64,000 nucleotides of DNA from Paracoccus binzhouensis. Lineage in GTDB: Bacteria; Pseudomonadota; Alphaproteobacteria; Rhodobacterales; Rhodobacteraceae. The notes beneath the pieces were generated by a model that was not told the origin of the DNA, searched no databases, and saw nothing but the letters and a program-made list of their open reading frames with translations. Both the position numbers and the translations under genes were made by a program. This document shows, one piece after another, positions 39,514 to 56,608 of this stretch (its first letter is position 1; each line of letters opens with the position of its first letter). The DNA is taken from positions 1 through 64,000 of the forward strand of contig NZ_JAEHFP010000008.1 of assembly GCF_016446475.1 (NCBI RefSeq), written 5' to 3'.

Positions 39514-40293
39514 TCAGCCGGTGTCGCCCCCGGCGACGGGCAGGACCGAGCCGGTGATGTAGGAGGCCTCGTCCGAGGCCAGGAACAGGATCGGCGCGAC
39601 CTGTTCGTCGATCGTGCCATAGCGTTTCATCAGGCTGGATTGCGTCACCTGCTCGACCACCTCGGCCATCCAGGCCCGTTCGGCGGCCGTGTCGCCCAGG
39701 GCATTGCGGGGGATGCGGCGCGGCGGCGCCTCGGTGCCGCCGGGGGCGGTGGCGGTGACGCGGATGTTCTGTCCGGCCAGCTCCATCGCCAGCGACCGGG
39801 TGATGGCGTTGACGCCGCCCTTGGCCGCCGAATAGGGCACGCGATGGATGCCGCGGGTCGCATTCGACGAGACATTGACGATGGTGCCGCCGCCGCGCGC
39901 CATGAGATGCGGCAGCACCGCCCGGCAGCAATAGAGCGTCGGCATCAGCGAGCGGCGGATCTCGGCGTCGATCTGGCCGGGCTCGAATTCGGCAAAGGGC
40001 CGCATGCGGATGGCGCCGCCGACATTGTTGATGAGGATGTCGATGCCGCCATAGACGCGCGCCGCCTCGTTCATCGCCGCCTCGGCGCCGTCCCAGGTTT
40101 CCAGGTCGGCGCAGAAGGCCCGGGCGCCGGACTCGGCCGCCACCTCTGCCACGAAATCGGTGCGGTCCACGAACAGCACCCGCCCGCCCTCGGCCGCGGC
40201 GCGGCTGGCGACGGCGCGGCCGATGCCCTGCGCCGCGCCGGTGACGACCAGAACCTTGCCGGCGAAGCGGCCGTCGAAGACCCGCCCGCTCAT
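39514..40293 (-). CDS. benD: Benzoate cis-diol dehydrogenase (SDR)
   Basis: A 259-residue classical short-chain dehydrogenase oxidising 1,6-dihydroxycyclohexa-2,4-diene-1-carboxylate to catechol with CO2 release. NAD motif TGAAQGIGRAVA, NNVGGAIRMRPF, catalytic Ser in IVNVSSNATRG and Tyr/Lys in PYSAAKGGVNAI are present. The NVGG-IRMRPF stretch is typical of BenD/XylL. The ATG overlaps the benC stop by four bases. Confidence 0.93.
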   Translation of the reverse strand: MSGRVFDGRFAGKVLVVTGAAQGIGRAVASRAAAEGGRVLFVDRTDFVAEVAAESGARAFCADLETWDGAEAAMNEAARVYGGIDILINNVGGAIRMRPFAEFEPGQIDAEIRRSLMPTLYCCRAVLPHLMARGGGTIVNVSSNATRGIHRVPYSAAKGGVNAITRSLAMELAGQNIRVTATAPGGTEAPPRRIPRNALGDTAAERAWMAEVVEQVTQSSLMKRYGTIDEQVAPILFLASDEASYITGSVLPVAGGDTG

Positions 40294-41312
40294 GCGCTGG
40301 CCTTCAGGGGCGCGTTGGGGGTGAATTTCTCGTAATGGAAGCTGGCGGGCCGGATGCCATTGTCGTCGAGGTAATGGCGCACCGCATCGACCATGGCCGG
40401 CGGGCCGCACAGATAAATGTCGACCTCGCCGGCCGCCAGCATCGCCTCGGGCATGTGCTGCGTGACCCAACCCTTGCGCGGATGCGCCGAATCCGGGTCG
40501 GCGACCACGGTGTCATAGCTGAAATTCGGCAGCCGCTCGGCATAGGCCGCCAGCTCGTCCACCAGCACCAGGTCGAGATCGCGGGTCACGCCATAGACCA
40601 GATGCACGGGCTGCTGCGCATCGGCGCGGGCCAGCACTTCGAGCATGGACAGGAAGGGCGCAAGCCCGGTGCCGCCGGCCAGGAAAAGCAGCGGACGTTC
40701 ACCGTCGCGCAGATAGAAGCTGCCCATCGGCCCGGTCAGCTCCAGCCGGTCGCCGGGGGCGGCGCGGTCCAGCCAGGTGCTCATCAGCCCGCCGGGGATC
40801 TTCTTGATCAGGAAGCCCAGGTCCGCCTCGCCCGGCGCGCTGCTGAAGGAATAGGAGCGGTTGCCCGCGCTGCCCGGCACGTCGATGTTGACATATTGCC
40901 CGGGCAGGAAGGCGGGCGGCTCGCCCTCGACCTGCATTTCCAGCACCACGGCGGCATCGGCCTGCGGCGCGATCCGGGTGACGGTGGCGGCGAATTTCTG
41001 CTGGCCGGTCTTGCAGGCGCCGGCGCTGGTCGGCACCGCCAGCACGCAATCGCTGGACGGCACCATCTGGCAGGTCAGCACCAGCCCCTCGGCGGCCTCG
41101 TCCTCGGTCAGGGCGTCCTCGATATAGTCCTCGCCCATGTCATAGGCGCCGCTTTCGGCCCGGCACTTGCAGGTGCCGCAGACGCCGTCGGAACAGTCCA
41201 TCGGCAGGTTGATCTTGTTGCGAAAGGCGGCGTCCAGCACCTTTTCGCCCGGCTTGCAGTCGATGAAGCGGGTAACGCCGTCCTCGAAATTCAATGCGAT
41301 GCGATAGCACAT
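40290..41312 (-). CDS. benC: Benzoate 1,2-dioxygenase reductase (ferredoxin + FNR-type)
   Basis: A 340-residue electron-transfer component passing electrons from NADH to BenAB. An N-terminal plant-type 2Fe-2S domain has the cysteine pattern MDCSDGVCGTCKC with the fourth Cys in LVLTCQM. An FAD domain has NRSYSFSSAPGE, and the NAD domain has LLFLAGGTGLAPFLSMLE and a C-terminal YLCGPPAMVDA. Domain order and length match BenC/XylZ. It is followed by benD with a 4-bp overlap. Confidence 0.94.
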   Translation of the reverse strand: MCYRIALNFEDGVTRFIDCKPGEKVLDAAFRNKINLPMDCSDGVCGTCKCRAESGAYDMGEDYIEDALTEDEAAEGLVLTCQMVPSSDCVLAVPTSAGACKTGQQKFAATVTRIAPQADAAVVLEMQVEGEPPAFLPGQYVNIDVPGSAGNRSYSFSSAPGEADLGFLIKKIPGGLMSTWLDRAAPGDRLELTGPMGSFYLRDGERPLLFLAGGTGLAPFLSMLEVLARADAQQPVHLVYGVTRDLDLVLVDELAAYAERLPNFSYDTVVADPDSAHPRKGWVTQHMPEAMLAAGEVDIYLCGPPAMVDAVRHYLDDNGIRPASFHYEKFTPNAPLKASA

Positions 41313-41348
41313 GCTCGCCTCCTCCTCGCGTTTGTGCTGGGTCGGCGG

Positions 41349-41858
41349 TCAGACGTGATAGACGTCGATGACCTGCCGGATGTAGTCGTTCTTGAGCACG
41401 ATCTTCTTGGCCGAGATCGCCAGCCCCCCGTCCGCCTGGCGCAGGGTGACGAAGATGGTGCCGAAAAACTGGTCGGTGACCTTGTAGCGGTGGTTCAGCG
41501 TCAGGAAGTTGTAGCGCACGTCCACTTCGTCCCCGCGCTCGGCGATGACCTCGACATTGCTGACCGTGTGGCTGGTGCGCGGCTCGGGCGTGGATGCGCC
41601 CGAACGCTCGGTCTTGATGCGGAACACCCGGTCCTCGAGCCCCTCGCGGTTCGGGTAGTAGATCAGCGAGATCTCGGATTGCGGATCCTCGGTGATCTGG
41701 TCGTTGTCGTCCCAGGCCGGCATCCAGTAGCTGGCATCGGGTGCATAGCAGGTCAGCCATTCGTCCCATTGCCGGTCGTCGAGCAGCCGGGCCTCGCGGT
41801 AGAGAAAGGCGCAGATGGCGTTGTAGTCGAGGCGGGTGGCGGTGTGATCCAGGCTCAT
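41349..41858 (-). CDS. benB: Benzoate 1,2-dioxygenase small (beta) subunit
   Basis: A 169-residue ring-hydroxylating dioxygenase beta subunit with the cystatin-like cone fold: [30 protein letters not shown] and [10 protein letters not shown] are typical of BenB/XylY. It has no cofactor and stabilises the alpha3beta3 enzyme. Its start overlaps the benA stop by ATGA. Confidence 0.94.
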
Positions 41859-43213
41859 GCCGCTTCTCCCTGCTTCTCGGTCGCGAGCGCGCTGCGCATG
41901 ACCTTGGCCCAATGCTCGTGCTGGCAGACGAACAGCCCCTCATCCTCGCTGCGCTCGCCCGAGATCAGCGGGTTCAGCCCCATGCGGCGGGCGTTCTCGT
42001 CGGGACCGTGGATCCACAGCGGCGCGCCGCGCGACATGTCGTTCCACAGCGCCACGGTGCCGGCATAGGCGGTCTGGCAGGCGCGGAATTCTTCCAGATC
42101 GTCCGAGGTGCCCATGCCCGAGACGTTGAAGAAATCCTCGTATTGCCGGATGCGGTGGGCGCGGTCCTCGGCGCTTTCCCCCTTGGGGGCGAAGCAGAAG
42201 ATGGTGACCTCGGTCCTGTCCACGGAAAGCGGGCGCACGACGCGGATCTGGGTGCTGAACTGGTCCATCAGGAACACGTTCGGATAGAGGCAAAGATTGC
42301 GGGTCTGGTTGACGATGAAGCCCGCCTTCTCCTCGCCCAGGCGGGCGACGAGGTCGTCGCGGCGGTTCCAGATCGGCCGCACCTCGGGGTTCTTCGTGTT
42401 GGTCCACAGCAGGATATGGCCGTTCTCGAAGCCATAGACGCCGGCGACCGATTTCGACCAGCTGTTGGCGTCCACCGCCTTGGTGCCGGTCTCGCTGCGC
42501 CGGTCCATGGTGGTGGCGTAGTTCCAATGCACCGAGCTGACGTGGTAGCCGTCGCAGCCGTTCTCCATCTGCAGCTTCCAGTTGCCGTCGTAGATATAGG
42601 AGGAATTGCCGCGCAGCACCTCCAGCCCCTCGGGGGCCTGGTCGACGATCTGGTCGATGATGGTGCGGGTCTCGCCCAGATATTCCTCCAGCGGGGCGAC
42701 ATCGGGGTTCAGGCTGCCGAACAGGAAGCCGCGATAGCTGTCGAAGCGCGCCACGCGGGTCAGGTCGTGCGAGCCGTCCGTGTTGAACTGCTCGGGGTAT
42801 TGCGTGGTCTTGGCGTCCTTGACCTTCAACAGCTTGCCGGTGTTGGAAAAGGTCCAGCCGTGGAAGGGACAGGTGAAGCTGCCCTTGTTGCCCTGCTTGC
42901 GGCGGCACAGCATGGCGCCCTTGTGGGCGCAGGCGTTGATGACGGCGTTCAGCGTGCCGGTCTTGTCGCGGGTGATGACGATGGGCTGGCGGCCGATGAA
43001 GGTGGTGTAATAGTCGTTCACCTCGGGGATCTGGCTTTCATGCGCCAGATAGACCCAGTTGCCCTCGAAGATGTGCTTCATTTCCAGCGCATAGAGGTCT
43101 TCGTTGGTGAAGATGTCGCGGCGGCAGCGGAACAGGCCGGCCTCGCTGTCGTCCTGCACGGCGATGTCCAGCAGGCGGTCCAGGTCCCGGGCCTTGTCGA
43201 TGATCGCGGACAT
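41855..43213 (-). CDS. benA: Benzoate 1,2-dioxygenase large (alpha) subunit
   Basis: A 452-residue Rieske non-heme iron oxygenase that dihydroxylates benzoate at C1/C2. The Rieske centre is C95-x-H97 ... C115-x2-H118 (NACAHKGA and TCPFHGW). The mononuclear iron site lies in [17 protein letters not shown] (two His and a bridging Asp upstream). The length matches BenA. The 127-bp gap back to catA contains no recognised gene; it could hold an internal promoter. The ribosome site is GGAGGAGCCATC. Confidence 0.95.
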
Positions 43214-43340
43214 GATGGCTCCTCCCTCCGGGATGGCGGCGCGCAGGCGGCTGTCCCGGTCGATGTCGGTGATGATTGAAGGGTGGGTTCAGGCTGGGTG
43301 CAGGCGCCGGCCGCTGGGGACAGGCGCCCGCCCGGGTCCG

Positions 43341-44279
43341 TCAGGCGGCGGTGCGCTTGCGGTTCTCGTTGACCTGGTTGTCGACGCCATCGACCAGCGC
43401 GGTCAGGTGGATGTCGAATTCGATCTCGGCAAAGGGGCCGTTCAGGTTGTTGGCGTGGATGCTGGCCTCGTCGTCGCGCTCGACGACTTTCGGCACCAGT
43501 CCCTCGCGGGTGGCATAGGCGAAATCGTCGTTGATCAGTGGATCGCCCTCGATGTTGATCTGGGTGGTCAGCTTGCGATGGCCGTCGGCGCTGATGAAGA
43601 AGTGGATATGCGCCGGGCGCTGGCCGTGGCGGCCAAGCGCGCTCAGCAGCCGCTCGGTCGGGCTGCCGGGCGGCACGCCATAGCCGCTGGGCAGGATGCT
43701 CTGGAACTTGTAGCGGCCGTTCTCGTCGGCGATGATGGTGCGGCGCATGTTGAAGGGCGCCTGCTTGCCGGTCGGGTCGAAATGCGAATAGAAGCCGCGG
43801 GTGTCGCAATGCCAGATCTCGACCTTGGCGCCGGGCAGCGGCTGGCCGTCGGCGCCGTGCACGACCCCGTGCATGATCAGCGTGTGGCCGTCGGCGTCGG
43901 TGCCGTCGTCCAGCCGGGCAAAGCCCACCGATTCCGGGGCGCCGGCGACATAAAGCGGCCCCTCGATGGTGCGGGGCGTCGGGTTGTCGATCCCCAGCGC
44001 CGCGTCGATGGCGTCCAGCCGCTCGTCCAGGAAATGGTCCACGCCGAGGCCGGGCGAGATCAGGCCCGCCTGTCCCGCGGCGCCGATGTCGTTCAGCCAG
44101 GCCACGCCGGTCCAGTATTCGTCGGGGGTGATGTTCAGATCGTCGATGGCCTTGAACAGGTCCGACATCAGCCGGTGCACGATCTGCTTCATGCGCGCAT
44201 CGCCGTCGTCATTGGTCAGGCCGCTCAGCACCTTCAGGAAATCCTGCACGTCGGGCCGGTCGAAAATCTTCACAGTCAT
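43341..44279 (-). CDS. catA: Catechol 1,2-dioxygenase
   Basis: A 312-residue intradiol Fe(III) dioxygenase opening catechol to cis,cis-muconate. The N-terminal helical dimer domain covers about 1-100. Iron ligands are Tyr in TIEGPLYVAGAPE, Tyr in SILPSGYGVPPGSP, and the two His of GQRPAHIHFFIS. Sequence order matches CatA rather than PcaH or chlorocatechol enzymes. It stands between catC and benA in one convergent set of catabolic genes on the minus strand. Confidence 0.95.
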   Translation of the reverse strand: MTVKIFDRPDVQDFLKVLSGLTNDDGDARMKQIVHRLMSDLFKAIDDLNITPDEYWTGVAWLNDIGAAGQAGLISPGLGVDHFLDERLDAIDAALGIDNPTPRTIEGPLYVAGAPESVGFARLDDGTDADGHTLIMHGVVHGADGQPLPGAKVEIWHCDTRGFYSHFDPTGKQAPFNMRRTIIADENGRYKFQSILPSGYGVPPGSPTERLLSALGRHGQRPAHIHFFISADGHRKLTTQINIEGDPLINDDFAYATREGLVPKVVERDDEASIHANNLNGPFAEIEFDIHLTALVDGVDNQVNENRKRTAA

Positions 44280-44350
44280 GGTCTCTCCTCCTGGATTCTC
44301 GTGGAAACTGGGACGGGCCGGCTCCTCCGCCGGCGCCGGGGAAGGGCGGT

Positions 44351-44641
44351 CTAGCGGTCATCCTCGCGGATGGAGGACGGGTGGCGCAGCAGCGGCGTCA
44401 CCGCGATCTGCATGAAGGGAAACAGCGGCAGGCCGGACAGGATCTCGTGCAGCTCGGCGTTGTCCTGCACCTCGAAGACGCTGAAATTCGCGTATTCGCC
44501 GGCCAGCCGCCAGATGTGGCGCCACTTGCCGCTGCGCTGCAATTCCTGGGAATAGGCCTTTTCGCGGGCGAGGATCTCGGCCACCTGCTCGTGCGGCAGG
44601 TCGTAGGGGATCTTCACGTCCATCCGAACATGGAACAGCAT
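44351..44641 (-). CDS. catC: Muconolactone delta-isomerase
   Basis: A 96-residue ferredoxin-like protein, the usual CatC length, forming a decamer. The opening LFHVRMDVKIPYDLP and the core REKAYSQELQRSGKWRHIWR with catalytic acid/base region, then SVFEVQDNAELHEILSGLPLFPFM, are diagnostic. It converts muconolactone into beta-ketoadipate enol-lactone, the PcaD substrate. Eleven bases separate it from catB. Confidence 0.95.
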   Translation of the reverse strand: MLFHVRMDVKIPYDLPHEQVAEILAREKAYSQELQRSGKWRHIWRLAGEYANFSVFEVQDNAELHEILSGLPLFPFMQIAVTPLLRHPSSIREDDR

Positions 44642-44652
44642 GGCGGACCTCC

Positions 44653-45825
44653 TCAGTTGGTCTTGCGACGGAAACCGTCGCGGGCAAAGAAGGCCACGCG
44701 GTCCTCGTCCAGTTCGATGCCAAGGCCGGGGCCCGAGGGCACGGTCAGTTCGAAATCGCTGTAATCCAGCGGCGCGCGCAGGATCTCCTCGGTCAGCAGC
44801 AAGGGGCCGAACAGCTCGGTGCCCCATTGCAGGTTGGCGAAGGTCGAGAAGGCATGGGCCGAGGCGACAGTGCCGACCGCGCCTTCCAGCATGGTGCCGC
44901 CGTAAAGGCCGATCCCGGCCGCATCGGCGATGGCCGCCACGCGCAGGGCGTTGAACGGGCCGCCGCATTGCTCGATCTTGACGGCAAAGACATCGGCGCC
45001 GTGGACCCGGGCCAGCTCGAAGGCCGATTCCGGGCCCGAGAGCGATTCATCGGCCATCAGCGCCGTGGGGAAGCGGCGCACCAGCCGCCCCAGAGCCGCC
45101 GCCGAAGCCACCGGCTGTTCGACCAGCTCGCAGCCGGCATCGGCCAGCGCCGCCATGCCAAGCGTGGCCTCGGTCTCGCTCCAGGCCATGTTCACATCGA
45201 CGCGCACTGCGGCACGGTCCCCCAGCGCGCGTTTGATCGCGGCAACATGGGCAACGTCCTCGCGCAGCGCGCGAGCGCCGATCTTCAGCTTGAAGATGCG
45301 GTGGCGGCGCCGGTCCAGCATCTCCTCGGCCTCGGCGATGTCGCGGGCGGTGTCGCCCGAGGCCAGCGTCCAGGCAACCGGCAGCCGGTCGCGGCGCCGC
45401 CCGCCCAGCAGCTCGCTGACCGGCAGGCCCAGCCGCTTGCCATGGGCATCCAGCAGCGCGGTCTCGACGGCGCTTTTGGCGAAGCGGTTCTCCTTGACCA
45501 GCTTGCCGATGCGCGCCATCAGCGCCTGGATGCGGGTCGCGTCCTGGCCCAGCATGGCGGCGGCGACATAGGTGTCGATGGCCAGCTTCATGCTTTCGGG
45601 GCTTTCGCCGCCATAGGCCAGCCCGCCGATGGTCGTGCCCTCGCCGATGCCGATCACGCCGTCGCTGCAGCGGATCTTCACCAGCATCAGGGTCTGGCCG
45701 TTCATCGTGGCGACCGACAGCTTGTGCGGCCGGATGGTGGGCAGATCGACCAGGATGGTCTCGACCCGGTCGATGACCGGGCTGACGGCGGTGGTCGGGG
45801 CGAGGGGTGCGAATGTCTGGTTCAT
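44653..45825 (-). CDS. catB: Muconate cycloisomerase
   Basis: A 390-residue enolase-superfamily enzyme (muconate-lactonising). The catalytic K-x-K is in IFKLKIGARALR; metal ligands are Asp in RVDVNMAW, Glu in LVEQPVAS and Asp in LMADESLSG; the second Lys is in FAVKIEQCGG. The C-terminal GGTMLEGAVGT is typical of CatB. The start at 45825 (MNQTF) is chosen by conservation; upstream codons overlap the operator. It heads the cat-ben transcript, divergent from catR. Confidence 0.94.
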   Translation of the reverse strand: MNQTFAPLAPTTAVSPVIDRVETILVDLPTIRPHKLSVATMNGQTLMLVKIRCSDGVIGIGEGTTIGGLAYGGESPESMKLAIDTYVAAAMLGQDATRIQALMARIGKLVKENRFAKSAVETALLDAHGKRLGLPVSELLGGRRRDRLPVAWTLASGDTARDIAEAEEMLDRRRHRIFKLKIGARALREDVAHVAAIKRALGDRAAVRVDVNMAWSETEATLGMAALADAGCELVEQPVASAAALGRLVRRFPTALMADESLSGPESAFELARVHGADVFAVKIEQCGGPFNALRVAAIADAAGIGLYGGTMLEGAVGTVASAHAFSTFANLQWGTELFGPLLLTEEILRAPLDYSDFELTVPSGPGLGIELDEDRVAFFARDGFRRKTN

Positions 45826-45991: not shown

Positions 45992-46969
45992 ATGGATCTG
46001 CGGCAGTTGCGCTATTTCGTGGCCGTGGCGCGCGAGCGGAACTTCACCCGTGCCGCCGAGACGCTGCACATCGCCCAGCCGCCGCTGAGCCGGCAGATCC
46101 AGCTGCTGGAGGAGGAGCTGGGCGTGACGCTGATCCTGCGCAAGAGCCGCCCGGTGCAGCTGACCGATGCCGGGCGGCTGTTCTATGAACAGGCGCTGCA
46201 GGTGCTGGGCCGCGTCGACCAGATGAAGGACGCCACGCGCCGGGTGGGGCTGAACCAGAACAGCGTGTTCTCGATCGGCTTCGTGGCCTCGACGCTTTAC
46301 GGGGGGCTGCCCTCGCTGGTCCGCAAGCTGCGCCACCGCGCGCCCGAACTGGATATCCGGCTGCTGGAGATGCTGTCGGTGCAGCAGATCCCCGCCCTGA
46401 AGGAGGGGCGTATCGACGTGGGTTTCGGCCGGCTGCGGCACAGCGATCCGAACGTGGTCGGCACGCTTTTGCGCGAGGAGCGGCTGGTCGTCGCCCTGCC
46501 GCCCGGCACGCCGCTGGCCGACCAGGACGCGCCCCTGCCGCTGGCGGCGCTGGCCGGCCAGACGCTGATCCTCTATCCCAAGGAGCCGCGGCCCAGCTAT
46601 GCCGACCATGTCATGCAGCTGCTGCAGGACCAGGAAGTGCGCCCCGCCGAGGTGGTCGAGGTGCGCGAGATCCAGACCGCGCTGGGGCTGGTGGCGGCCG
46701 AGGCGGGGCTTTGCGTCATCCCCTCCTCGGCGCGGCAGATGCGCTCGGACCTGGTCTATCGGCCTGTCGAGGGCACGCGCGCAACCTCGCCGGTGATCAT
46801 GAACCACCGCGCCGGGGACAATTCGCGCATCCTGGCGCTGATCAAGGACCTGATCCGCGAGATGTATGCCGAGGCGCCGCCCTGGCTGCACAGCAACAAC
46901 ATCGCCACGCCGGACATCGCCGACATGGCCGATCCCTTCGCCGCGCCTGGCCGCGGCAGGCCCAAATAG
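45992..46969 (+). CDS. catR: LysR-type regulator of the cat/ben genes
   Basis: A 325-residue LTTR. The N-terminal winged helix is MDLRQLRYFVAVARERNFTRAAE followed by LHIAQPPLSRQIQLLEEELG. The effector domain has SIGFVASTLYGGLPSLVRKLR and LTLILYP-like PLAALAGQTLILYPKEPRP, close to CatM/BenM/CatR, which sense cis,cis-muconate. Divergent placement against catB supports that role. The C-terminus is ~15 residues longer than usual (PDIADMADPFAAPGRG). Confidence 0.9.
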   Translation: MDLRQLRYFVAVARERNFTRAAETLHIAQPPLSRQIQLLEEELGVTLILRKSRPVQLTDAGRLFYEQALQVLGRVDQMKDATRRVGLNQNSVFSIGFVASTLYGGLPSLVRKLRHRAPELDIRLLEMLSVQQIPALKEGRIDVGFGRLRHSDPNVVGTLLREERLVVALPPGTPLADQDAPLPLAALAGQTLILYPKEPRPSYADHVMQLLQDQEVRPAEVVEVREIQTALGLVAAEAGLCVIPSSARQMRSDLVYRPVEGTRATSPVIMNHRAGDNSRILALIKDLIREMYAEAPPWLHSNNIATPDIADMADPFAAPGRGRPK

Positions 46970-47057
46970 GGCGGCGCGCAGCGGGTTCCGGCGGAATCGC
47001 GCCGATGGCTTTCACCCCAAGCTTGTGCAGGCGCGGACCCCCGGGCGTAATCCCGGC

Positions 47058-47633
47058 ATGACGGAAACGCGACGGACCTCTCTGCTTCGGCGTCTGAGGC
47101 TGCGCCTCGCGGCCTCGGTCGGGGTCGCGGCCGCAGTGCTGGTCGGCCTGTGGCTGAAGGTCCAGGATGCCCGTGCGCCGCAGGAACCGCCGGCGGTGAC
47201 CCTTGGGCAGGCGGTCGATCAGGGCCGGACCGAGATCACGCCGCTGTCCCTGTCGCTGGCGCCGCCGGAACGCGCGGGCGAGCCGGGGCGGCTGCTGCTG
47301 CGCGCCCGGCTGCTGAACCTGACCGGAGAGTCCCAGTTCGCGGTCTTCGGCTTCCCGCCGCATCCGCCCGAGCTTGCCTCCGGCGGTGTGGTCTGGCCCG
47401 AGCCCGAGGTCACGCTGGACCGCGACGGCGAGCTGCTGGCGCAGCTGCATCCGCGCCTGGCCGAGCGGGTGACGCTGGCCTGGCAGCTTCCGCCGGACTG
47501 GCAGCCCGGCCCGGTCTCGCTGACCTTCCACCGGCAGATCTTCAAGCTCAGGGACAATCTCTACGGCATGTCGAACTGGCTGCTGTTCCAGCCCGCCGCC
47601 CGCATGACCATCATGCCCGAGGGCGCGCCATGA
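47058..47633 (+). CDS. Uncharacterised membrane-anchored protein, gene 1 of three
   Basis: A 191-residue protein with one N-terminal helix (about residues 18-34, ASVGVAAAVLVGLWL) after an arginine-rich cytoplasmic start, and a beta-rich presumably periplasmic domain (RLLLRARLLNLTGESQFAVFG). No enzyme motif is visible. I do not recognise the family. It is linked by an ATGA overlap to the next gene, which has the same layout. Confidence 0.75.
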   Translation: MTETRRTSLLRRLRLRLAASVGVAAAVLVGLWLKVQDARAPQEPPAVTLGQAVDQGRTEITPLSLSLAPPERAGEPGRLLLRARLLNLTGESQFAVFGFPPHPPELASGGVVWPEPEVTLDRDGELLAQLHPRLAERVTLAWQLPPDWQPGPVSLTFHRQIFKLRDNLYGMSNWLLFQPAARMTIMPEGAP

Positions 47634-48175
47634 TCTGGCCGGGTCGCATTGCCATCGTGCTGGCCGGGGCCGCGCTGCTGGGCGGAATGATGCAGACCGC
47701 CCCCGACTACAACAGTGTCGTGCAGCCCTTCCGCCACCATGTCGCGGCGGGCGGGACGGGTGAGGCGCGCAGCTTTCGCGCCCGTTTCACCGGCCTGCGC
47801 CTGGCCGACCGCATCGCCTTCCGGCATTTCAGCCGCGACCTGGTGCGCGACAGCGACGGCGTTTTCCTGGTCGCCGAGATCGAGGCCGAGGCCAGGCTGG
47901 CCTCGCAGCGCCTCGATGCGGTCTGGCAGGGGGCGAGCGGGCGGCGCTATGCGCTGTCGCGCCGCGCCGAGGGCATTCCGCGCGGGCTGGAAAGCCGCTG
48001 GTTCCAGCCCGGCCTGAGCAACCGCGCCGTCGCGGTCTTCGAGCTGCCCGAGGACGAGGTGGCGGGCGGTGCGCTGGTGCTGACGGGCGGTTTCATCGCG
48101 GTTTTCGACAGTGCCCTGTATCTGGCACCGCCGGCCCTGCCCGAGCGCCAGCCGATCATCCGGTTCGAACCATGA
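47630..48175 (+). CDS. Uncharacterised membrane-anchored protein, gene 2 of three
   Basis: A 181-residue protein with an N-terminal helix or signal anchor (IAIVLAGAALLGGMM) and a beta-sandwich-like domain: VFLVAEIEAEARLASQRLDAVW, GRRYALSRRAEGIP, WFQPGLSNRAVAVFELPED. The last pattern resembles DUF4352/telokin-like immunoprotective domains, which often read 'LQPGxxxxGVLVFEVP'; the resemblance is from memory. Overlaps both neighbours by four bases. Confidence 0.75.
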   Translation: MIWPGRIAIVLAGAALLGGMMQTAPDYNSVVQPFRHHVAAGGTGEARSFRARFTGLRLADRIAFRHFSRDLVRDSDGVFLVAEIEAEARLASQRLDAVWQGASGRRYALSRRAEGIPRGLESRWFQPGLSNRAVAVFELPEDEVAGGALVLTGGFIAVFDSALYLAPPALPERQPIIRFEP

Positions 48176-48723
48176 GACATCTGCTGTGGATCATCCTTGC
48201 CGCGGTCCTGCTGCTTGCCAACGTCGTGGTCGCGGGCTGGACCGAGATCACCGACCTGCGCCGCGCCCGCGAATGGCGGGTGGTGCAGGCCGGCGCGGCG
48301 GGGGCCGGGCTGCGCGGCGTGCATGTCCGGGTCGATCAGGTCTGGGCGGGCACCGCGCCCGACCTGTCCGAGCGGGCGCTGGTGCTGGTCCGTCTGGCGC
48401 TGCGCGGTCCCGAACCGGCGCGGCAGGGCTGGACCGGCTGCGACGTCAGCCTGCGCGATGCGGCGGATCGGGTCTGGCTGCCGCTGATCAGCGCCGATTC
48501 CGCGGGTGCCGTCCGGGTGCTTTCCCCCGACGGCGAGGACAACGGGCGCTGCAACCCCGTCCCCCATGACGCGCCGCCGGACGGGCAGGAGTTCCTGTCG
48601 GACCAGATTTTCCTGGTGCCTGCCGAATTGCTGAAGGGCGCGCGGCTGCGCGTCTCGGCCTGGGGGACGCGGCCCGAGGCGCTGGAATTCCCGGTCAAGC
48701 CGGTTCTGCGCGACCTGCACTAG
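48172..48723 (+). CDS. Uncharacterised membrane-anchored protein, gene 3 of three
   Basis: A 183-residue protein with one N-terminal helix (HLLWIILAAVLLLANVVVA) and a beta-rich domain with two cysteines (GWTGCDVSL, DNGRCNPVP) placed to form a disulfide in the periplasm. FLVPAELLKGARLRVS again resembles the 'fxVPxe' strand of the preceding protein. The 3' end overlaps the convergent membrane-protein gene by 29 bp. Confidence 0.75.
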   Translation: MRHLLWIILAAVLLLANVVVAGWTEITDLRRAREWRVVQAGAAGAGLRGVHVRVDQVWAGTAPDLSERALVLVRLALRGPEPARQGWTGCDVSLRDAADRVWLPLISADSAGAVRVLSPDGEDNGRCNPVPHDAPPDGQEFLSDQIFLVPAELLKGARLRVSAWGTRPEALEFPVKPVLRDLH

Positions 48724-50017
48724 CGGCGCGGGCCGCCTGCGCCCGCCCGGCCAGTTCCAGCCCGGCGGCGAGGATGCAGAATTGCACGACGCAGACCAGC
48801 ACCCCGCCCTGCGGCTGGCCGGGCGCGCCGAAAAGCAGGCCCAGCGGATATTGCGCCACCTCCCAGACCGACAGGTCCTGCGGCCCGATCAGCTCGGCCA
48901 GCCCGACCCAGGCCCAGCGGCCCGCCCAGTCGGCCAGCCGCCACAGCACCAGCACCGAGACGGTCAGCGCGAAGCCCGCCGACCCGGCCAGCAGCACGCC
49001 GTTCGCCACCGCATGCCAGCGCCTGACCAGCCCGGCCCAGAAATGCCCCAGGAAATCGGTCAGCGGCTTCGGCAGCCCCTGCCAGCGGTCCAGCACCTTG
49101 CCGGCCGAGCGCCGCGTCTCCTCGGACATCATGTTCAGGTCGTGGCCATAGACGATGGCGCCGAGGTTGAACCAGATCAGCGGCAGCAGCGCATACCAGA
49201 ACAGCCGGGTCAGCCAGGGCCAGGGCTGGAACACGGGCGGCCAGTCCACCGGGCGGCGCGCGGCATCGACGACCTCGGCCGCGGCCGGCGGGAACAGGTT
49301 CTGCCACAGCTCGCCGGGCGAGGGCAGCTGGGCCAGCCACGCGACGAAGCCCTCCTGCCAGCCCGAGATGACGTAAAGGCCCAGCACCGCCCAGCTCGCC
49401 TCGCAGGCGACGACCAGCAGCGGCCAGATCCCGGCCTCGCTGCGCTTGTGCATGGCCTTGGCGCCGCGCCGGATCGCCCAGATCAGCAGCACCGCCACCA
49501 CCACCCAGAGCGTGCTCTGCACCTCCAGCGCGGTGGGTGCGCGCTCGGGCGAGACCTCCGTAAAGTCGATGCGCTCCATCGAGGTGGACAGGAACGCCTT
49601 GGAATAGTCGCGCAGCGTGTTCCCGAGCAGGCCCCAGCCGGCATAATAGCCGTAGAACGGGATCAGCACCGCCAGCAGCGCCCCGGCCAGCATGCCGATG
49701 CCCGGAGCTTCGGCTGCGTCTTCCCCCGCGGTCGGCGCCTCGCGGCGGCGCCTGGCGCGAAAGCGCAGCACCGGCAGCCCGTCGCGCAGGATGACGAACA
49801 TGGCGACGAACAATACCAGCTGCAGCAGGATCACCGGCACCAGCGCGATCAGCCCGGCCAGCCGGTCGGCGAAGCCGATCTCGACCGCCAGCATCATCAG
49901 CACCCGGCCCACCAGGTCGCCGGCCAGCCAGGTGGCGGCCAGCACCGCGCCGTAGTCCCGAAACAGCCGCGCCGCCAGCAGGACATGCTGGCGCAGGATA
50001 TGCAGGTCCCCGGTCAT
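48695..50017 (-). CDS. Uncharacterised polytopic membrane protein
   Basis: A 440-residue protein with roughly eight hydrophobic segments, e.g. LIALVPVILLQLVLFVAMFV, IGMLAGALLAVLIPFYGYYA, PWPWLTRLFWYALLPLIWFN. The loops carry WQGLPKPLTDFLGHFWAGLVRRWHAV. No transporter or enzyme signature was recognised. Its start lies 41 bp after the stop of the 219-residue gene, so they form one transcript that converges on the three small envelope genes. Confidence 0.75.
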   Translation of the reverse strand: MTGDLHILRQHVLLAARLFRDYGAVLAATWLAGDLVGRVLMMLAVEIGFADRLAGLIALVPVILLQLVLFVAMFVILRDGLPVLRFRARRRREAPTAGEDAAEAPGIGMLAGALLAVLIPFYGYYAGWGLLGNTLRDYSKAFLSTSMERIDFTEVSPERAPTALEVQSTLWVVVAVLLIWAIRRGAKAMHKRSEAGIWPLLVVACEASWAVLGLYVISGWQEGFVAWLAQLPSPGELWQNLFPPAAAEVVDAARRPVDWPPVFQPWPWLTRLFWYALLPLIWFNLGAIVYGHDLNMMSEETRRSAGKVLDRWQGLPKPLTDFLGHFWAGLVRRWHAVANGVLLAGSAGFALTVSVLVLWRLADWAGRWAWVGLAELIGPQDLSVWEVAQYPLGLLFGAPGQPQGGVLVCVVQFCILAAGLELAGRAQAARAASAGRAEPA

Positions 50018-50058
50018 GGCCGCAGGATTGCAGGATCGCCCGCGCATCGCAAGCCGGG

Positions 50059-50718
50059 TCAGGGCTGGGCGTCGTCGGCGTGGCGGCCAAGGCCAAGCCC
50101 CATGCCCATGCCTGTCCCGCCGCCCATGCCGCCTCCGCCCCCACCGCCTCCGCCCTTGCCGCCGGATTCGCCGCGCCCGCCCCGGGACGAGCCGCCGGGC
50201 TGGCGCGCCGGGCCTTGCAGCGGAATGGTCACGTCGCCGGGCACCGGCGCGAGGTCCAGCGCCTTGCGGATGAAGTCGCGCAGCGATGCCACCAGTTCGG
50301 CCGTGTGGATCGGCCGGCCCGCGGCCATCTCGGTGGCGGCCTGGCTGGCCATGCGGACCTGGTCCTCGGTGCCCAGCAGGATGATGTCCGACAGCGCCGC
50401 CTCGACCGCGTCGCGGATGCGGCGGGAGCGGTCCGAGCCGGCGGCTTCCTCGGCGCCCGCCTCCTGCGCCCTTTGCCGCAGGTCGCGCAGATGCGTCGGA
50501 TCGACCAGCAATTCGCCGGTGAATGACCCGCCCAGCACCTTGTAGGCGGCGATCAGGGTGCGCAGGCGCTCGTTGATCTGGCGGTTCATCCGTTGCTGGC
50601 GCTGCTGGATGGTCAGCAGCATCAGCACCCGGATGCCCACGCCGATCAGCGTGAACAGCGCCAGGCCCAGCAGCGTCGTCAGGATCCCCTGCCACGAGCT
50701 GAAATCGAAATAGCGCAT
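50059..50718 (-). CDS. Uncharacterised single-span protein with glycine/methionine-rich tail
   Basis: A 219-residue protein. An N-terminal helix (ILTTLLGLALFTLIGVGIRVLMLLTI) is followed by a charged helical region with coiled-coil character (QQRQQRMNRQINERLRTLIAAY) and a long helical middle (RRIRDAVEAALSDIILLGTEDQVRMASQAATEMAAG). The last 45 residues are a Gly/Met low-complexity tail. First gene of the minus-strand pair. Confidence 0.75.
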   Translation of the reverse strand: MRYFDFSSWQGILTTLLGLALFTLIGVGIRVLMLLTIQQRQQRMNRQINERLRTLIAAYKVLGGSFTGELLVDPTHLRDLRQRAQEAGAEEAAGSDRSRRIRDAVEAALSDIILLGTEDQVRMASQAATEMAAGRPIHTAELVASLRDFIRKALDLAPVPGDVTIPLQGPARQPGGSSRGGRGESGGKGGGGGGGGGMGGGTGMGMGLGLGRHADDAQP

Positions 50719-50788
50719 CCTCCACCCCCGCCGTGATGGGCCTTTATCCCATCCCCCGACGGCACGGCGCCAGAGGGATTTGCGCCGG

Positions 50789-51196
50789 CTAGCCCTGCTT
50801 GCGGCGCAATTCCGCCTCGCGGGCGCGCAGCTCGGGGGTCAGCTCGGCGCCGAAATCCTCGGCTTCGAAGATCGGGCGCAGCTCCAGCTCGCCGTCGCGG
50901 AACGGGGCCTTTCTCGCCCAGTCCAGCGCTTCCTGCATCGAGGCGACCTGCCAGAGCCAGAAGCCCGCCACCAGCTCCCCGGTTGCGGCGAAGGGTCCGT
51001 CGAGAACCTGCGGCGCGTCCGCGCCGAAGCGGATGCGATGGCCGCGGGCGCTGGGATGCAGCCCCTCGCCGGCCAGCATCACGCCGGCCGTGGTCAGTTC
51101 CTCGTTGAAGCGGGTCATCTCGTCCAGTTCGGCGGTGGTCGGCATGACGCCGGCCTCGCTCTCCTCGCTGGCCTTGACCAATACCATGACGCGCAT
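50789..51196 (-). CDS. YCII-related (DGPF-domain) protein
   Basis: A 135-residue ferredoxin-like protein. MRVMVLVKASEESEAG, RFNEELTTAGVMLAGEGLHPSA, VLDGPFAATGELVAGFWLWQV (the DGPF motif) and a C-terminal ELRPIFEAEDF define the family, which often accompanies ECF sigma factors; none is present here. Function unknown, perhaps small-molecule dehalogenation or isomerisation by analogy. The start follows GAAAGGAGATCGCC. Confidence 0.88.
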   Translation of the reverse strand: MRVMVLVKASEESEAGVMPTTAELDEMTRFNEELTTAGVMLAGEGLHPSARGHRIRFGADAPQVLDGPFAATGELVAGFWLWQVASMQEALDWARKAPFRDGELELRPIFEAEDFGAELTPELRAREAELRRKQG

Positions 51197-51310
51197 GGCG
51201 ATCTCCTTTCCTCGGGTTGAGCATCGCGTCGGATGCAAGGACCAAGGAACGATCGGCGGGCATGGATTCCGACAGCCGCGCGAAGAAATTTCCGCGCGGC
51301 GGCCGGGCGG

Positions 51311-52699
51311 CTAGATGTGCAGCGCGTGACCCAGGGCGCGCAGGCAGGCCTCGTGCAGCGCTTCGCCGCGGGTCGGGTGGGCGTGGATGGTGCCGGTGAT
51401 GTCTTCGAGCCTTGCGCCCATCTCCAGCGCCAGCGCGAAGCCGCCCGCCATTTCGGCCACGCCGGCGCCGACGGCCTGGATCCCCAGCACCTCATGCGTG
51501 TCGGGCCGGGCGGTGACGCGGATGAAGCCCGCCTCGTCGCCCGCCGTCATCGCCCGGCCGTTGGCTGCGAAGGGGAACAGGCCCGTCACGACGTCCTGGC
51601 CCTGGGCCTTGGCCTCGTCGGGGGACAGGCCGACGCTGACGATCTCGGGATCGGTGAAGCAGACCGCCGGGATGGCGCGCTTGTCCCAGACCCGGGGCTG
51701 GCCCGCGACCAGTTCCGCCACCATCTCGCCCTGGGCCATGGCGCGATGGGCGAGCATCGGCTCGCCGGTCACGTCGCCGATGGCCAGCACCCCGGTCATC
51801 GAGGTGCGGCAGCGCTCGTCGATGCGGATATAGGGGCCGGCCATGTCCAGCCGCAGCCCGTCCAGCCCGGCGCCGGTGGCGCGCGGGCGGCGGCCGACCG
51901 TCACCAGCACCTTGTCGGCGGCGATGTCCTCGGCCCCGTCCACGCCGGCGACGCGCAGCGCGCCGCTGTCCGACAGCCCGCCGGCCCGTGCCCCGGTCAG
52001 CACGCGGATGCCCAGCTGGGTCAGGCGCTGCGCCACCGGCCGGGTCAGCTCGGCGTCATATTGCGGCAGGATGCGCGGCGCGGCCTCGACCACCGTGACC
52101 TGTGAGCCCAGCTTGGCGAAGGCGATGCCCAGTTCCAGCCCGATATAGCCGCCGCCGACCACGGCCAGCCGCTCGGGCACCTCGGTCAGCGCCAGCGCCC
52201 CGGTCGAGGAGATCACCTTGCCGCCGAAGGGCAGGGCCGGCACCTCGATCGGCTCCGAGCCGGTGGCGATGACCAGGACCTCGGTGCGGATCTGCACCGG
52301 GCCCTCGGGCGTCTCGACCAGCACGGTCTTGCCGTCGCGCACCGTGGCCCGGCCGGTCACCAGCCGCACCTTGGCCTTGCGCAGAAGCGTCGCCACGCCG
52401 CCGGTCAGGCGCTCGACGATGCCGTCCTTCCAGGCCATGGTGGCGGCCAGGTCCAGCGTCGCGCCGCCGGCCGAGATGCCCATGGCCGGCGTCGCGGCAA
52501 GCTGGGTCAGGCGGTGGAATTCCTCGGCCGCATGGATCAGCGCCTTGGAGGGGATGCAGCCGACGTTGAGGCAGGTGCCCCCCGGCGGCTCGGCATCGAC
52601 GATGACCGTATCGACGCCCAGCTGCCCGGCGCGGATGGCGCAGACATAGCCGCCGGGGCCGGCGCCGATGACCAGCAGCCTGCATTGGATCTCGCGCAT
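51311..52699 (-). CDS. lpdV: Dihydrolipoyl dehydrogenase (E3) of the branched-chain complex
   Basis: A 462-residue flavoprotein. FAD motif LLVIGAGPGGYVCAIRAGQLG, redox-active disulfide GGTCLNVGCIPSKAL, NAD motif LAVVGGGYIGLELGIAF, and the C-terminal HAHPTRGEALHEA with catalytic His/Glu are intact. It reoxidises lipoamide on the E2 encoded four bases upstream. The operon position makes it the dedicated E3 of the bkd complex. Confidence 0.95.
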   Translation of the reverse strand: MREIQCRLLVIGAGPGGYVCAIRAGQLGVDTVIVDAEPPGGTCLNVGCIPSKALIHAAEEFHRLTQLAATPAMGISAGGATLDLAATMAWKDGIVERLTGGVATLLRKAKVRLVTGRATVRDGKTVLVETPEGPVQIRTEVLVIATGSEPIEVPALPFGGKVISSTGALALTEVPERLAVVGGGYIGLELGIAFAKLGSQVTVVEAAPRILPQYDAELTRPVAQRLTQLGIRVLTGARAGGLSDSGALRVAGVDGAEDIAADKVLVTVGRRPRATGAGLDGLRLDMAGPYIRIDERCRTSMTGVLAIGDVTGEPMLAHRAMAQGEMVAELVAGQPRVWDKRAIPAVCFTDPEIVSVGLSPDEAKAQGQDVVTGLFPFAANGRAMTAGDEAGFIRVTARPDTHEVLGIQAVGAGVAEMAGGFALALEMGARLEDITGTIHAHPTRGEALHEACLRALGHALHI

Positions 52700-52702
52700 C
52701 GC

Positions 52703-54013
52703 TCAGCCCTCCACGAAGATCAGCGCCGGGGTCTCCAGCAGCTCTTTCAGCCGCGCCACGAAGACGGCGGCGTCCCAGCCGTCGATCACCCGGTGATCGA
52801 AGCTGCAGGACAGGTTCATCATCTTGCGCGGCTCGAAGGCCGCGCCGTTCCAGTGGGGTCGCACCGCCAGCCGGTTGACGCCGACGATGGCGACCTCGGG
52901 CACGTTCAGGATCGGGGTCGAGGCGATGGCGCCCAAGGGGCCCAGCGAGGTGATGGTGATGGTCGAGCCGCTGAGCTCGTCGCGTTTCGCCGTGCCGTCC
53001 TTGGCGGCATTGCCGATGCGGGCGATCTCGGCCGCGGTGGCGCGCAGGTCCAGCGCCTCGGCATGGCGCACGACCGGGACCATCAGGCCCGTGGGCGTCT
53101 GCGCGGCGATGCCCAGATGCACCGCGCCGAAGCGGCGGATCAGCCGCGCCTCGGCATCGTAATGCGCGTTCAGGATCGGCTGCTCATGCACGGCGCGCAC
53201 GATGGCGCGGGCGATGAAGGCCAGGGGGTTCAGCTTCGGCCCCTTGCCATGGGCGTTCATCCGGGCACGCAGCTCTTCCAGCGCCGTGGCGTCCACTTCC
53301 TCGACGATGGTGATCTGCGGGATGCTGTTCGCGGCCTCCATGCGCTCGGCGATCTTGCGGCGCAAGCCGATGACGCGGATCTCCTCGACCGTGTTGTCGG
53401 GCTGCGGGCCCGAGGGCGCGGGAATGCCGCCCGAGGCGATGAAGGCGTCCAGGTCCTCGTGCCCGATGCGGCCGGCGGGACCCGACCCGCGCACCAGCCG
53501 CAGGTCCACCCCGGCCTCGCGCGCCCGCGCCCGGACCGAGGGCGAGGCGATGGGCTTTTCCCCCTCGGGCCGCAGCGGCGCGGCCGAGGCGGCGGCGGGC
53601 CTGACCGCCGGTTTCGGGGCCGGCGCTTCGGGTTCCGGTTCGTGCCGGGGCTCGGTTTCGGCCTTCGCCTCCGCCGGTTCGGGATCGGGCGGCGCGGTCT
53701 CGGCCTGCCGCGACGATCCCGACGCTTCTGCCGGCGCCGGGGTCTCGGCATCGCTGGCGACGTTGCCCGGCCCGTCCACCTCCAGCCGCACCAGCTCGGC
53801 GCCGACGGCGATCACGTCGCCCGGCTGGCCGGCCTGCCAGACCACGGTGCCGGTGACGGGCGAGGGGATTTCCACCGTGGCCTTGTCGGTCATCACCGCG
53901 ACCATCGGGTCGTCCTCGCGCAGGACGTCGCCGGGCTTGACCAGCCATTCGGCGATCTCGGCCTCGGCAATGCCTTCGCCGATATCGGGCATGCGGATTG
54001 CGTGAATACCCAT
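52703..54013 (-). CDS. bkdB: Dihydrolipoyl acyltransferase (E2) of the branched-chain 2-oxoacid dehydrogenase
   Basis: A 436-residue E2. One lipoyl domain has its Lys in [13 protein letters not shown]; an acidic Pro/Ala/Glu-rich linker spans about 85-145; a peripheral subunit-binding domain follows ([18 protein letters not shown]); the C-terminal catalytic domain ends in [15 protein letters not shown] with the H-x3-DG active site. A single lipoyl domain and the operon with E1alpha/E1beta fit the branched-chain complex. Confidence 0.95.
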
Positions 54014-54014
54014 G

Positions 54015-55031
54015 TCAGGCCACCTCGACCAGTTGACGCAATGCCTCGGCCACCCGCGCGGGGCCGGGGAAATAGCTCCATTCATGGGTGTGCGGATAGG
54101 GCGTGTCCCAGCCCGCCACCCGCCGGATCGGCGCTTCCAGATGCCAGAAGCATTCCGCCTGCACCAGCGCCGCCAGTTCCGCACCATAGCCCGAGGTCAG
54201 CGTCGCCTCGTGCAGCACCAGGCAGCGGCCGGTCTTGCTGACCGAGGCCGCCACCGTCTCCATGTCGAGCGGCAGCAGGGTGCGCAGGTCGATCACCTCG
54301 GCATCGACGCCCGACTCGGCCGCTGCCGCCAGCGCGACATGGACCATGGTGCCATAGGTCAGGATTGTCGCGGCCTGGCCCTGGCGGCGCACCACCGCCT
54401 TGCCCAGCGGCACGGTGTAATGCCCCTCGGGCACCTCGCCCAGCTCGTGGGTCTTCCAGGCGGTGACCGGGCGGTCGTGATGGCCGTCGAAGGGGCCGTT
54501 GTAGAGCCGCTTCGGTTCCAGGAAGATCACCGGGTCGGGATCCGCGATGGCCGAGAGCAGCAGCCCCTTGGCGTCCCGCGGGTTCGAGGGCACCACGGTC
54601 TTGAGCCCCGTGACATGGGTGAACAGCGCCTCGGGCGACTGGCTGTGGGTCTGGCCGCCGAAGATGCCGCCGCCCGTCGGCATGCGCACCACCATCGGGC
54701 AGGTGAACTGCCCGGCCGAGCGGTAACGCAGCCGCGCTGCCTCGGACACGATCTGGTCATAGGCGGGATAGACGTAGTCGGCGAACTGGATCTCGACCAC
54801 CGGCTTCAGCCCATAGGCGGCCATGCCGATGCCGGCGCCGACGATGCCGGATTCGTTGATCGGCGTGTCGAAGCAGCGGGTCTTGCCGTATTTCGCCTGC
54901 AGGCCGGCGGTGCAGCGGAAGACGCCGCCGAAATAGCCCACGTCCTCGCCGAACACCACCACGCGGGGGTCGGCGCCCATGGCCACGTCCAGCGCGTCGC
55001 GGATGGCCTCGATCATCGTCATGCGTGCCAT
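54015..55031 (-). CDS. bkdA2: 2-Oxoisovalerate dehydrogenase E1 beta subunit
   Basis: A 338-residue transketolase-like protein: [59 protein letters not shown], then [21 protein letters not shown]. With the alpha subunit it forms the thiamine diphosphate site of the branched-chain complex. One base separates its stop from the bkdB start. The C-terminus ([17 protein letters not shown]) is typical of BCKDH E1 beta. Confidence 0.95.
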
Positions 55032-55032
55032 G

Positions 55033-56608
<1,576 letters not shown>

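What the first reader, a model, noticed from the sequence alone, without database searches (positions are those of the whole stretch)
47058..50718. Five-gene convergent envelope module of unknown function
Three small proteins of equal size (191, 181 and 183 residues), each with one N-terminal anchor and a beta-rich outer domain, are chained by ATGA overlaps. They converge, with a 29-bp 3' overlap, on an operon of a polytopic membrane protein and an anchored coiled-coil protein with Gly/Met tail. Repeated architecture and tight packing suggest one assembly, possibly a membrane complex whose three outer subunits arose by duplication. No enzyme motif is evident. This is my best candidate for an undescribed system.
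Basis: partly seen in the sequence, partly recalled or inferred. Interest (0 to 1): 0.6.

Follow-up and report, generated by a model that had tools for sequence, protein, structure and literature searches.

The report
Four-gene convergent inner-membrane module
Four uncharacterised genes, one for a many-pass membrane protein and three for small anchored proteins of which at least one looks immunoglobulin-like, travel together tail-to-tail between soil and water bacteria, so they probably build one undescribed membrane complex; the fifth gene of the original finding is a bystander.

Summary
"Five genes" is wrong; "one assembly" is well supported once E (50059-50718) is dropped: E is in 24 of 101 genomes searched, D in 6. 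D and B share the same 6 of 101. In the Rhizobiaceae draw, D is in 18 of 247 genomes, all 18 with A, B and C convergent to D. Of 23 loci from a species-wide scan (Paracoccus, Hyphomicrobiales, Alcaligenaceae), 22 show D><CBA; one Shinella plasmid has a co-directional D-A-B-C operon. Flanks differ, the D tree mixes orders, and 40 plasmid records carry D: it moves as a cassette. A and B are distant paralogues (hhalign 88%). C is predicted (pLDDT 89) to have the immunoglobulin-like fold of YxkC/YjhA/MPT63. A and B touch DUF4352 only below cut-off. D has 8 predicted helices and matches nothing. Best reading: an inner-membrane complex, D as core, A-C as periplasmic sensing or gating subunits. The complex is likely but untested; what it senses or moves is unknown.

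The parts
47058..47633 (+). A: single-anchor outer-domain protein, 191 aa; most conserved stretch around K163, N167, L168 and W174 (F-K-L-R-D-N-L-Y-G ... W)
   Evidence: paralogue of B by hhalign; 3 of 32 members touch DUF4352 weakly
47630..48175 (+). B: single-anchor outer-domain protein, 181 aa
   Evidence: 2 of 32 members touch DUF4352 and 1 of 32 DUF1942, all weakly
48172..48723 (+). C: single-anchor immunoglobulin-like protein, 183 aa, with two cysteines (C90, C127) invariant in 31 of 31 rows
   Evidence: AlphaFold2 model pLDDT 88.7, pTM 0.78; Foldseek and VIA-align matches
48695..50017 (-). D: polytopic inner-membrane protein, 440 aa, 8 predicted transmembrane segments, N-in/C-in; core of the module; no known family
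   Evidence: model of low confidence, pLDDT 63
48695..48723 (.). 29-nt tail-to-tail overlap of the C and D reading frames
   Evidence: no terminator-like site in 46900-50850 (0.8 expected by chance, so weak evidence)
50059..50718 (-). E: anchored protein with Gly/Met tail, 219 aa; listed because the finding includes it, judged NOT part of the module

Best explanation
A, B, C and D are one self-contained, horizontally moving module that encodes an inner-membrane complex. D, with 8 predicted transmembrane helices, is the core. A, B and C are each anchored in the inner membrane by one N-terminal helix and put immunoglobulin-like (DUF4352/MPT63-type) domains into the periplasm, where I propose that they sit on the larger periplasmic loops of D (about residues 132-163, 219-271 and 359-401) and couple an envelope signal or ligand to the activity of D. 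Shown: conserved linkage and order, co-inheritance, purifying selection, topology pattern, predicted fold of C, A-B paralogy. Inferred: a physical complex (about 0.75) and the immunoglobulin-like fold of A and B. Only a proposal: D as a gated channel or transporter with A-C as sensing or gating subunits (about 0.3). The conserved tail-to-tail layout could make the D and ABC transcripts run into each other and balance the two halves; this too is a proposal (about 0.25).
For: D and B in the same 6 of 101 genomes, the window's own among them (hypergeometric 8e-10). In a Rhizobiaceae draw D in 18 of 247 and B in 20 of 247 genomes, shared in 18 (2e-25; related genomes are not independent, so these are not true probabilities), and all 18 carry A, B, C and D with D convergent. 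22 of 23 genome-contig loci have D><CBA. Of 8 rhizobial plasmid hits opened, D, A and B homologues or their fragments are found in 8 and C in 7. Shinella WSC3-e encodes D-A-B-C on one strand, D and A overlapping by 4 nt. Identity matrices of D against A, B, C correlate at r 0.88-0.95 (22 loci each) and 0.90-0.94 (16 of the 18 Rhizobiaceae loci); none of 2000 permutations reaches them. dN/dS 0.16-0.60 over four comparisons per gene. C model pLDDT 88.7: YxkC Z 10.8, YjhA 10.0, YcdA 9.4, MPT63 8.7; Foldseek E 2e-6 for YxkC. A-B hhalign 88% against a maximum of 2.1% in 60 shuffles. D loop charges alternate as for 8 helices. PMC3924330 (one passage read) suggests extracellular ligand recognition for DUF4352; PMC4520260 (one passage read) gives DUF4352 an immunoglobulin fold.
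Against: No physical interaction was or could be tested. In P. siganidrum D and ABC lie 51 kb apart. G1009 has A, B and a weak C without D. Some copies look broken: A in two frames in L014 and with a stop in L017, B in two frames in L035, B in two frames in L050 and L047 in fragments, so the function is dispensable, unless these are sequencing errors. Nothing ties D to channels or transporters; its model is poor. The DUF4352 matches of A and B stay below Pfam's cut-off and are no stronger than clearly chance matches in the same scans, such as HTH_29 in C at 0.0026; the window's own A, B and C match nothing. The fold match of C has TM-scores of only 0.35-0.55 for the five best Foldseek rows. 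C is not alignable with A or B beyond shuffle level once the anchor is cut. A conserved convergent layout is not what one expects for subunits needed in a fixed ratio.
Confidence: 0.5

Rival explanations
1. Two antagonistic halves: ABC and D act against each other (effector and restraint, or alternative states), and the tail-to-tail overlap is an excludon-like switch in which each transcript silences the other.
For: Convergent orientation occurs on both sides of the deepest branch of the D tree; of 43 distinct loci measured, 27 overlap at the 3' ends and 41 lie within 75 nt. Excludons are an established concept (PMC7154746, title and start of abstract seen in the listing).
Against: In Shinella WSC3-e the genes form one co-directional operon D-A-B-C with a 4-nt D/A overlap, which a switch would not tolerate. 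In P. siganidrum the halves are 51 kb apart. No RNA data.
Confidence: 0.15
2. An anti-phage, exclusion or competition system, as suggested by patchy distribution, plasmid carriage and broken copies.
For: 40 plasmid records carry D, 17 typed conjugative; in pAtCFBP6625b it lies beside traA, traD and traG; in Rhizobium CC-CFT758 near a toxin-antitoxin pair and a recombinase; the D tree mixes orders.
Against: No PADLOC match for any of the five proteins at E 1; among 125 flanking proteins two PADLOC models (mad3, mad8) match one protein each at 1e-10, while transport, regulation and catabolism lead the Pfam list; no relative of D in viral contigs.
Confidence: 0.12
3. An accessory exporter or importer for a compound tied to soil life, with A-C as substrate-binding partners.
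For: Flanks often hold transport and catabolic genes; three larger periplasmic loops in D.
Against: No constant neighbour points to a substrate: the commonest flanking cluster, ABC-type ATPases by eye, is in 9 of 25 stretches, the next in 4; no transporter family for D.
Confidence: 0.2
4. Linkage without function: neighbouring accessory genes that hitch-hike together.
For: Copies are sometimes broken.
Against: Same gene set and order from Alcaligenaceae to Rhizobiaceae, with D down to about 30% identity, changing flanks and dN/dS below 1 for all four genes.
Confidence: 0.03

Closest known systems
DUF4352 (PF11611) / DUF1942-MPT63 immunoglobulin-like envelope proteins (B. subtilis YxkC, YjhA, YcdA; M. 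tuberculosis MPT63)
   Same: Small exported or membrane-attached beta-sandwich; the C model aligns over 117-125 residues at 3.1-3.6 A rmsd to YxkC, YjhA, YcdA and MPT63; A and B touch DUF4352 or DUF1942 weakly.
   Different: Anchored by an N-terminal helix; come as a fixed set of three next to a polytopic protein; sequence below the family cut-off. That YxkC and YjhA bear DUF4352 and MPT63 DUF1942 is recalled.
Excludons (overlapping convergent or divergent transcription units)
   Same: Two units meet tail-to-tail, often overlapping.
   Different: No transcript evidence; one lineage has the genes in one direction, and the products look like partners rather than opponents.
Channels or pumps with single-span immunoglobulin-like auxiliary subunits (recalled: sodium-channel beta subunits)
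   Same: Design of a polytopic core plus single-helix immunoglobulin-like partners.
   Different: No homology of D to any channel was found; analogy only.

Membership tests
DUF4352 (PF11611) | Sequence score above Pfam's gathering cut-off | tested here: not met
   Window A, B, C: no match at E 1. Relatives reach 14.4-17.6 bits against 25.9; 3 of 32 A, 2 of 32 B and 0 of 31 C members match at E up to 1.
DUF4352 / MPT63-like immunoglobulin fold | Immunoglobulin-like beta-sandwich fold | tested here: met
   For C only, on a predicted model: pLDDT 88.7, Z 10.8 to YxkC and 8.7 to MPT63, Foldseek E 2e-6 with TM about 0.46. A and B were not modelled.
DUF4352-type envelope proteins | Extracytoplasmic location through signal, lipid or membrane anchor | tested here: inconclusive
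   One N-terminal hydrophobic segment in the A, B and C families, with a basic start; topology not measured.
Three-paralogue set by duplication | Detectable homology among A, B and C outside the anchor | tested here: inconclusive
   Whole proteins: A-B 88.1, A-C 34.8, B-C 9.2%, each above all 60 shuffles. Anchors cut: A-B 53.3% against a maximum of 2.6%; A-C 1.8%, score 18.2 against a shuffle maximum of 18.0; B-C 0.4%, reached by 6 of 60.
Known anti-phage defence system (PADLOC) | Match to a PADLOC protein model | tested here: not met
   No match for A-E at E 1.
Known transporter or channel family for D | Match to a curated family or solved fold | tested here: inconclusive
   No Pfam match above cut-off; NCBIfam SetB 18.7 bits against 693; no meaningful PDB sequence or Foldseek match, but the D model is poor.
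Excludon | Overlapping antisense transcripts with mutual repression | not testable with these tools
   Only the gene layout is known.

The most novel reading that the evidence does not exclude
A previously undescribed four-subunit inner-membrane machine: a new polytopic protein family gated or assembled by three immunoglobulin-like periplasmic subunits, spread as a partly plasmid-borne cassette through Alpha- and Betaproteobacteria, whose subunit balance is set by a conserved tail-to-tail overlap of the two gene sets.
Probability: 0.3. Interest if true: 0.75.

Novelty: new variant of a known kind. Interest (0 to 1): 0.5.

Why it matters
If true, it gives a new family of polytopic membrane proteins its constant partners and shows that immunoglobulin-like DUF4352-type domains, of unknown function, can act as a matched set on a membrane core. 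A conserved convergent layout for probable complex partners runs against the usual rule that subunits share an operon, and the Shinella operon version gives a natural control. The module is small, portable and present in easily handled Paracoccus and Sinorhizobium strains, so its function can be tested directly.

Tried and rejected
E as a module member: rejected. Against that, E is weakly associated with D inside the set searched (4 of 6 D genomes have E against 20 of 95 without D, p 0.03). E was seen next to D in four genomes: the window's, G058, P. sp. MKU1 (L015 and L021 are the same locus) and P. denitrificans. Two of the 24 E matches (G020, G062) are weak or partial.

hhalign of A, B, C with close relatives only gave 0.7-1.9%, with rhizobial plasmid rows added 4-14%; only the alignments of 31-32 rows gave 88% for A-B. 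The positive answer thus came at the third try with deeper alignments; shuffled and reversed controls were run on that last set only.

D model: too poor to interpret; the best Foldseek row has E 0.23. Profile searches of solved structures with A-D found nothing of note. Viral contigs: no relatives of D. A class-wide draw of 385 genomes found only the window's own (profile without rhizobial rows, at most 4 candidates scored a genome), and a phylum draw of 398 found 6 including the window's, so the module is rare. Prevalence in the betaproteobacterial family was not measured. Literature: the searches showed no description of this module in their listings; (YxkC) returned noise. Defence-island idea: two PADLOC models, one protein each, among 125 flanking proteins. 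L093 (G857) is a weak B match alone and is not counted as a member.

therefore holds 44 values from 43 distinct loci; I give the counts for 43. Left out of those values: L026 (no ABC beside D), L042 (C frame runs through, value 606), L018 and L019 (L019 is the locus of L040) and the plasmid loci. Start codons could not be set well for L029 C, L035 A and L038 B. Flank scan: 125 of 132 listed proteins, 7 dropped for size; the set includes E itself, and genes come from my own simple gene finder, which makes errors.
Full report
Observation. The five reading frames are present as described. A, B and C are 191, 181 and 183 aa, joined by two 4-nt ATGA overlaps, and C overlaps the end of D by 29 nt. 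D is best read from ATG 50017 (440 aa). E lies 41 nt upstream of D on the same strand. None of the five matches a Pfam family above its cut-off; the NCBIfam matches are far below theirs, and PADLOC gives none.

What travels together. A search of 101 genomes (relatives, the window's own included) found D in 6 and B in the same 6 (8e-10). In 22 of the 23, C, B and A follow D tail-to-tail in the window's order. The exception is P. siganidrum, where ABC lies on the same contig 51 kb away. In a draw of 247 Rhizobiaceae genomes D is in 18 and B in 20; 18 are shared (2e-25), and all 18 carry A, B, C and D with D convergent to the others. One of the 18 (G998) is the Paramesorhizobium of L023. Genomes in such sets are related, so the two values are not true probabilities. 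The two B-only genomes are G1009, with A, B and a weak C but no D, and G857, a weak match that I do not count.

Plasmids. tblastn with D finds 40 plasmid records, all covering at least 80% of D: Sinorhizobium 17, Ensifer 9, Rhizobium 6, Paracoccus 4, Shinella 3, Agrobacterium 1; 17 are typed conjugative. I opened ten of the 40. In the eight rhizobial ones D, A and B homologues or their fragments are found in 8 and C in 7: six are convergent, one (L047) is in fragments without a detected C, and one, Shinella sp. WSC3-e (L046), has D, A, B and C in one direction with D and A overlapping by 4 nt. The two Paracoccus plasmids show D with three convergent small genes by annotation. The Shinella operon is the clearest hint that all four products serve one purpose.

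E is a bystander. E is in 24 of 101 genomes (two of the matches weak), D in 6. Of the six D genomes, G006 and G035 lack E and G053 has it on another contig. In Paracoccus sp. TOH plasmid p1 the module sits beside the same branched-chain keto acid dehydrogenase and YciI genes as in the window, but only 320 nt separate YciI from D, so E is not there. E was seen next to D in four genomes. A weak association of E with D remains (p 0.03).

Mobility. Around the module the commonest other gene cluster is in 9 of 25 stretches (ABC-type ATPases by eye) and the next in 4. Transport, regulatory and catabolic families lead the list of flanking domains. A maximum-likelihood tree of 48 D proteins mixes Paracoccus and Hyphomicrobiales, with at least 3 changes forced by well-supported branches; the two betaproteobacterial rows group beside a Hyphomicrobiales clade with less than full support (83/89). 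Paramesorhizobium deserti D is 85% identical to the window's. Identity matrices of D and A, B, C agree closely (r 0.88-0.95), so the unit is inherited whole. dN/dS of 0.16-0.60 over four comparisons per gene points to purifying selection, strongest on D. Apparently broken copies exist, so the function is accessory.

Layout. Of 43 distinct loci measured, the C and D frames overlap in 27 and their ends lie within 75 nt in 41 (with L058 struck out as a second copy of L023). Exactly 29 nt is seen in 10; eight of these are in the D tree, all in the window's half, and the other two, L014 and L021, have D 93 and 91% identical to the window's. A and B overlap by 4 nt in 20 of the 23 loci listed. No intrinsic terminator-like site was found in 46900-50850, but shuffles give only 0.8 by chance, so this says little. 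Convergent loci lie on both sides of the deepest branch of the D tree, so the layout is old and mostly kept.

The proteins. D shows 8 hydrophobic segments and loop charges that alternate as for N-in/C-in, with larger outer loops at about 132-163, 219-271 and 359-401. Its model is poor (pLDDT 63) and matches no solved fold, so its fold is undetermined. C is modelled well (pLDDT 88.7, pTM 0.78) as an anchor helix and a beta-rich domain. Foldseek's best match is YxkC (E 2e-6, TM about 0.46), and VIA-align ranks YxkC Z 10.8, YjhA 10.0, YcdA 9.4 and MPT63 8.7, above unrelated rows that begin near 7. DUF4352 has an immunoglobulin fold (PMC4520260, one passage read) and has been proposed to recognise extracellular ligands (PMC3924330, one passage read). 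A and B reach DUF4352 only weakly in a few relatives, no better than chance families in the same scans. They are related to each other: hhalign 88%, maximum 2.1% in 60 column shuffles, and 53% against 2.6% with the anchors removed. C against A and B exceeds all shuffles with the anchors in (34.8 and 9.2%) but not convincingly without them (1.8 and 0.4%). So the three share a general design, two share ancestry, and the third has the superfamily's fold by prediction.

How it most likely works. Shown: linkage, co-inheritance, selection, C's predicted fold, A-B paralogy. Inferred: an inner-membrane complex with D as core and three periplasmic partners (about 0.75). Proposed: the partners sense an envelope ligand or state and gate a transport or channel activity of D (about 0.3). 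The conserved residues of A (K163, N167, L168, W174) and the two invariant cysteines of C are the first places to mutate. The convergent overlap may balance expression, but the Shinella operon shows that it is not required.

Verdict. The part with the least precedent is D; the small proteins fall near a known superfamily. I file it as a new variant of a known kind (immunoglobulin-like envelope partners on a membrane core), with D as an unplaced family.

Noticed in passing
window 40290-45825 (-) and 45992-46969 (+): By sequence appearance (recalled, not searched) an aromatic catabolic set: benzoate-type ring dioxygenase, catechol-type dioxygenase, muconolactone isomerase, muconate cycloisomerase and a divergent LysR regulator, directly before the module.
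   Followed up: no
window 50789-56280 (-): YciI-like gene and a four-gene branched-chain keto acid dehydrogenase set beside the module; the same setting occurs in Paracoccus sp. TOH plasmid p1 without E.
   Followed up: partly
L102 (P. ferrooxidans pFER4): The same module sits beside iolC/iolB instead of the keto acid dehydrogenase genes, a second setting in a near relative.
   Followed up: partly
L044 7968-10939 (Agrobacterium pAtCFBP6625b): The module lies between traA/traD/traG and DUF736/DUF1738 genes of a plasmid typed conjugative.
   Followed up: no
L075 (G1009): A, B and a weak, possibly truncated C, with no D found in the genome: a decaying or D-independent copy.
   Followed up: no
window 50059-50718 (-): E is its own gene family, in 24 of 101 genomes searched, with a Gly/Met-rich tail; role unknown.
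   Followed up: partly
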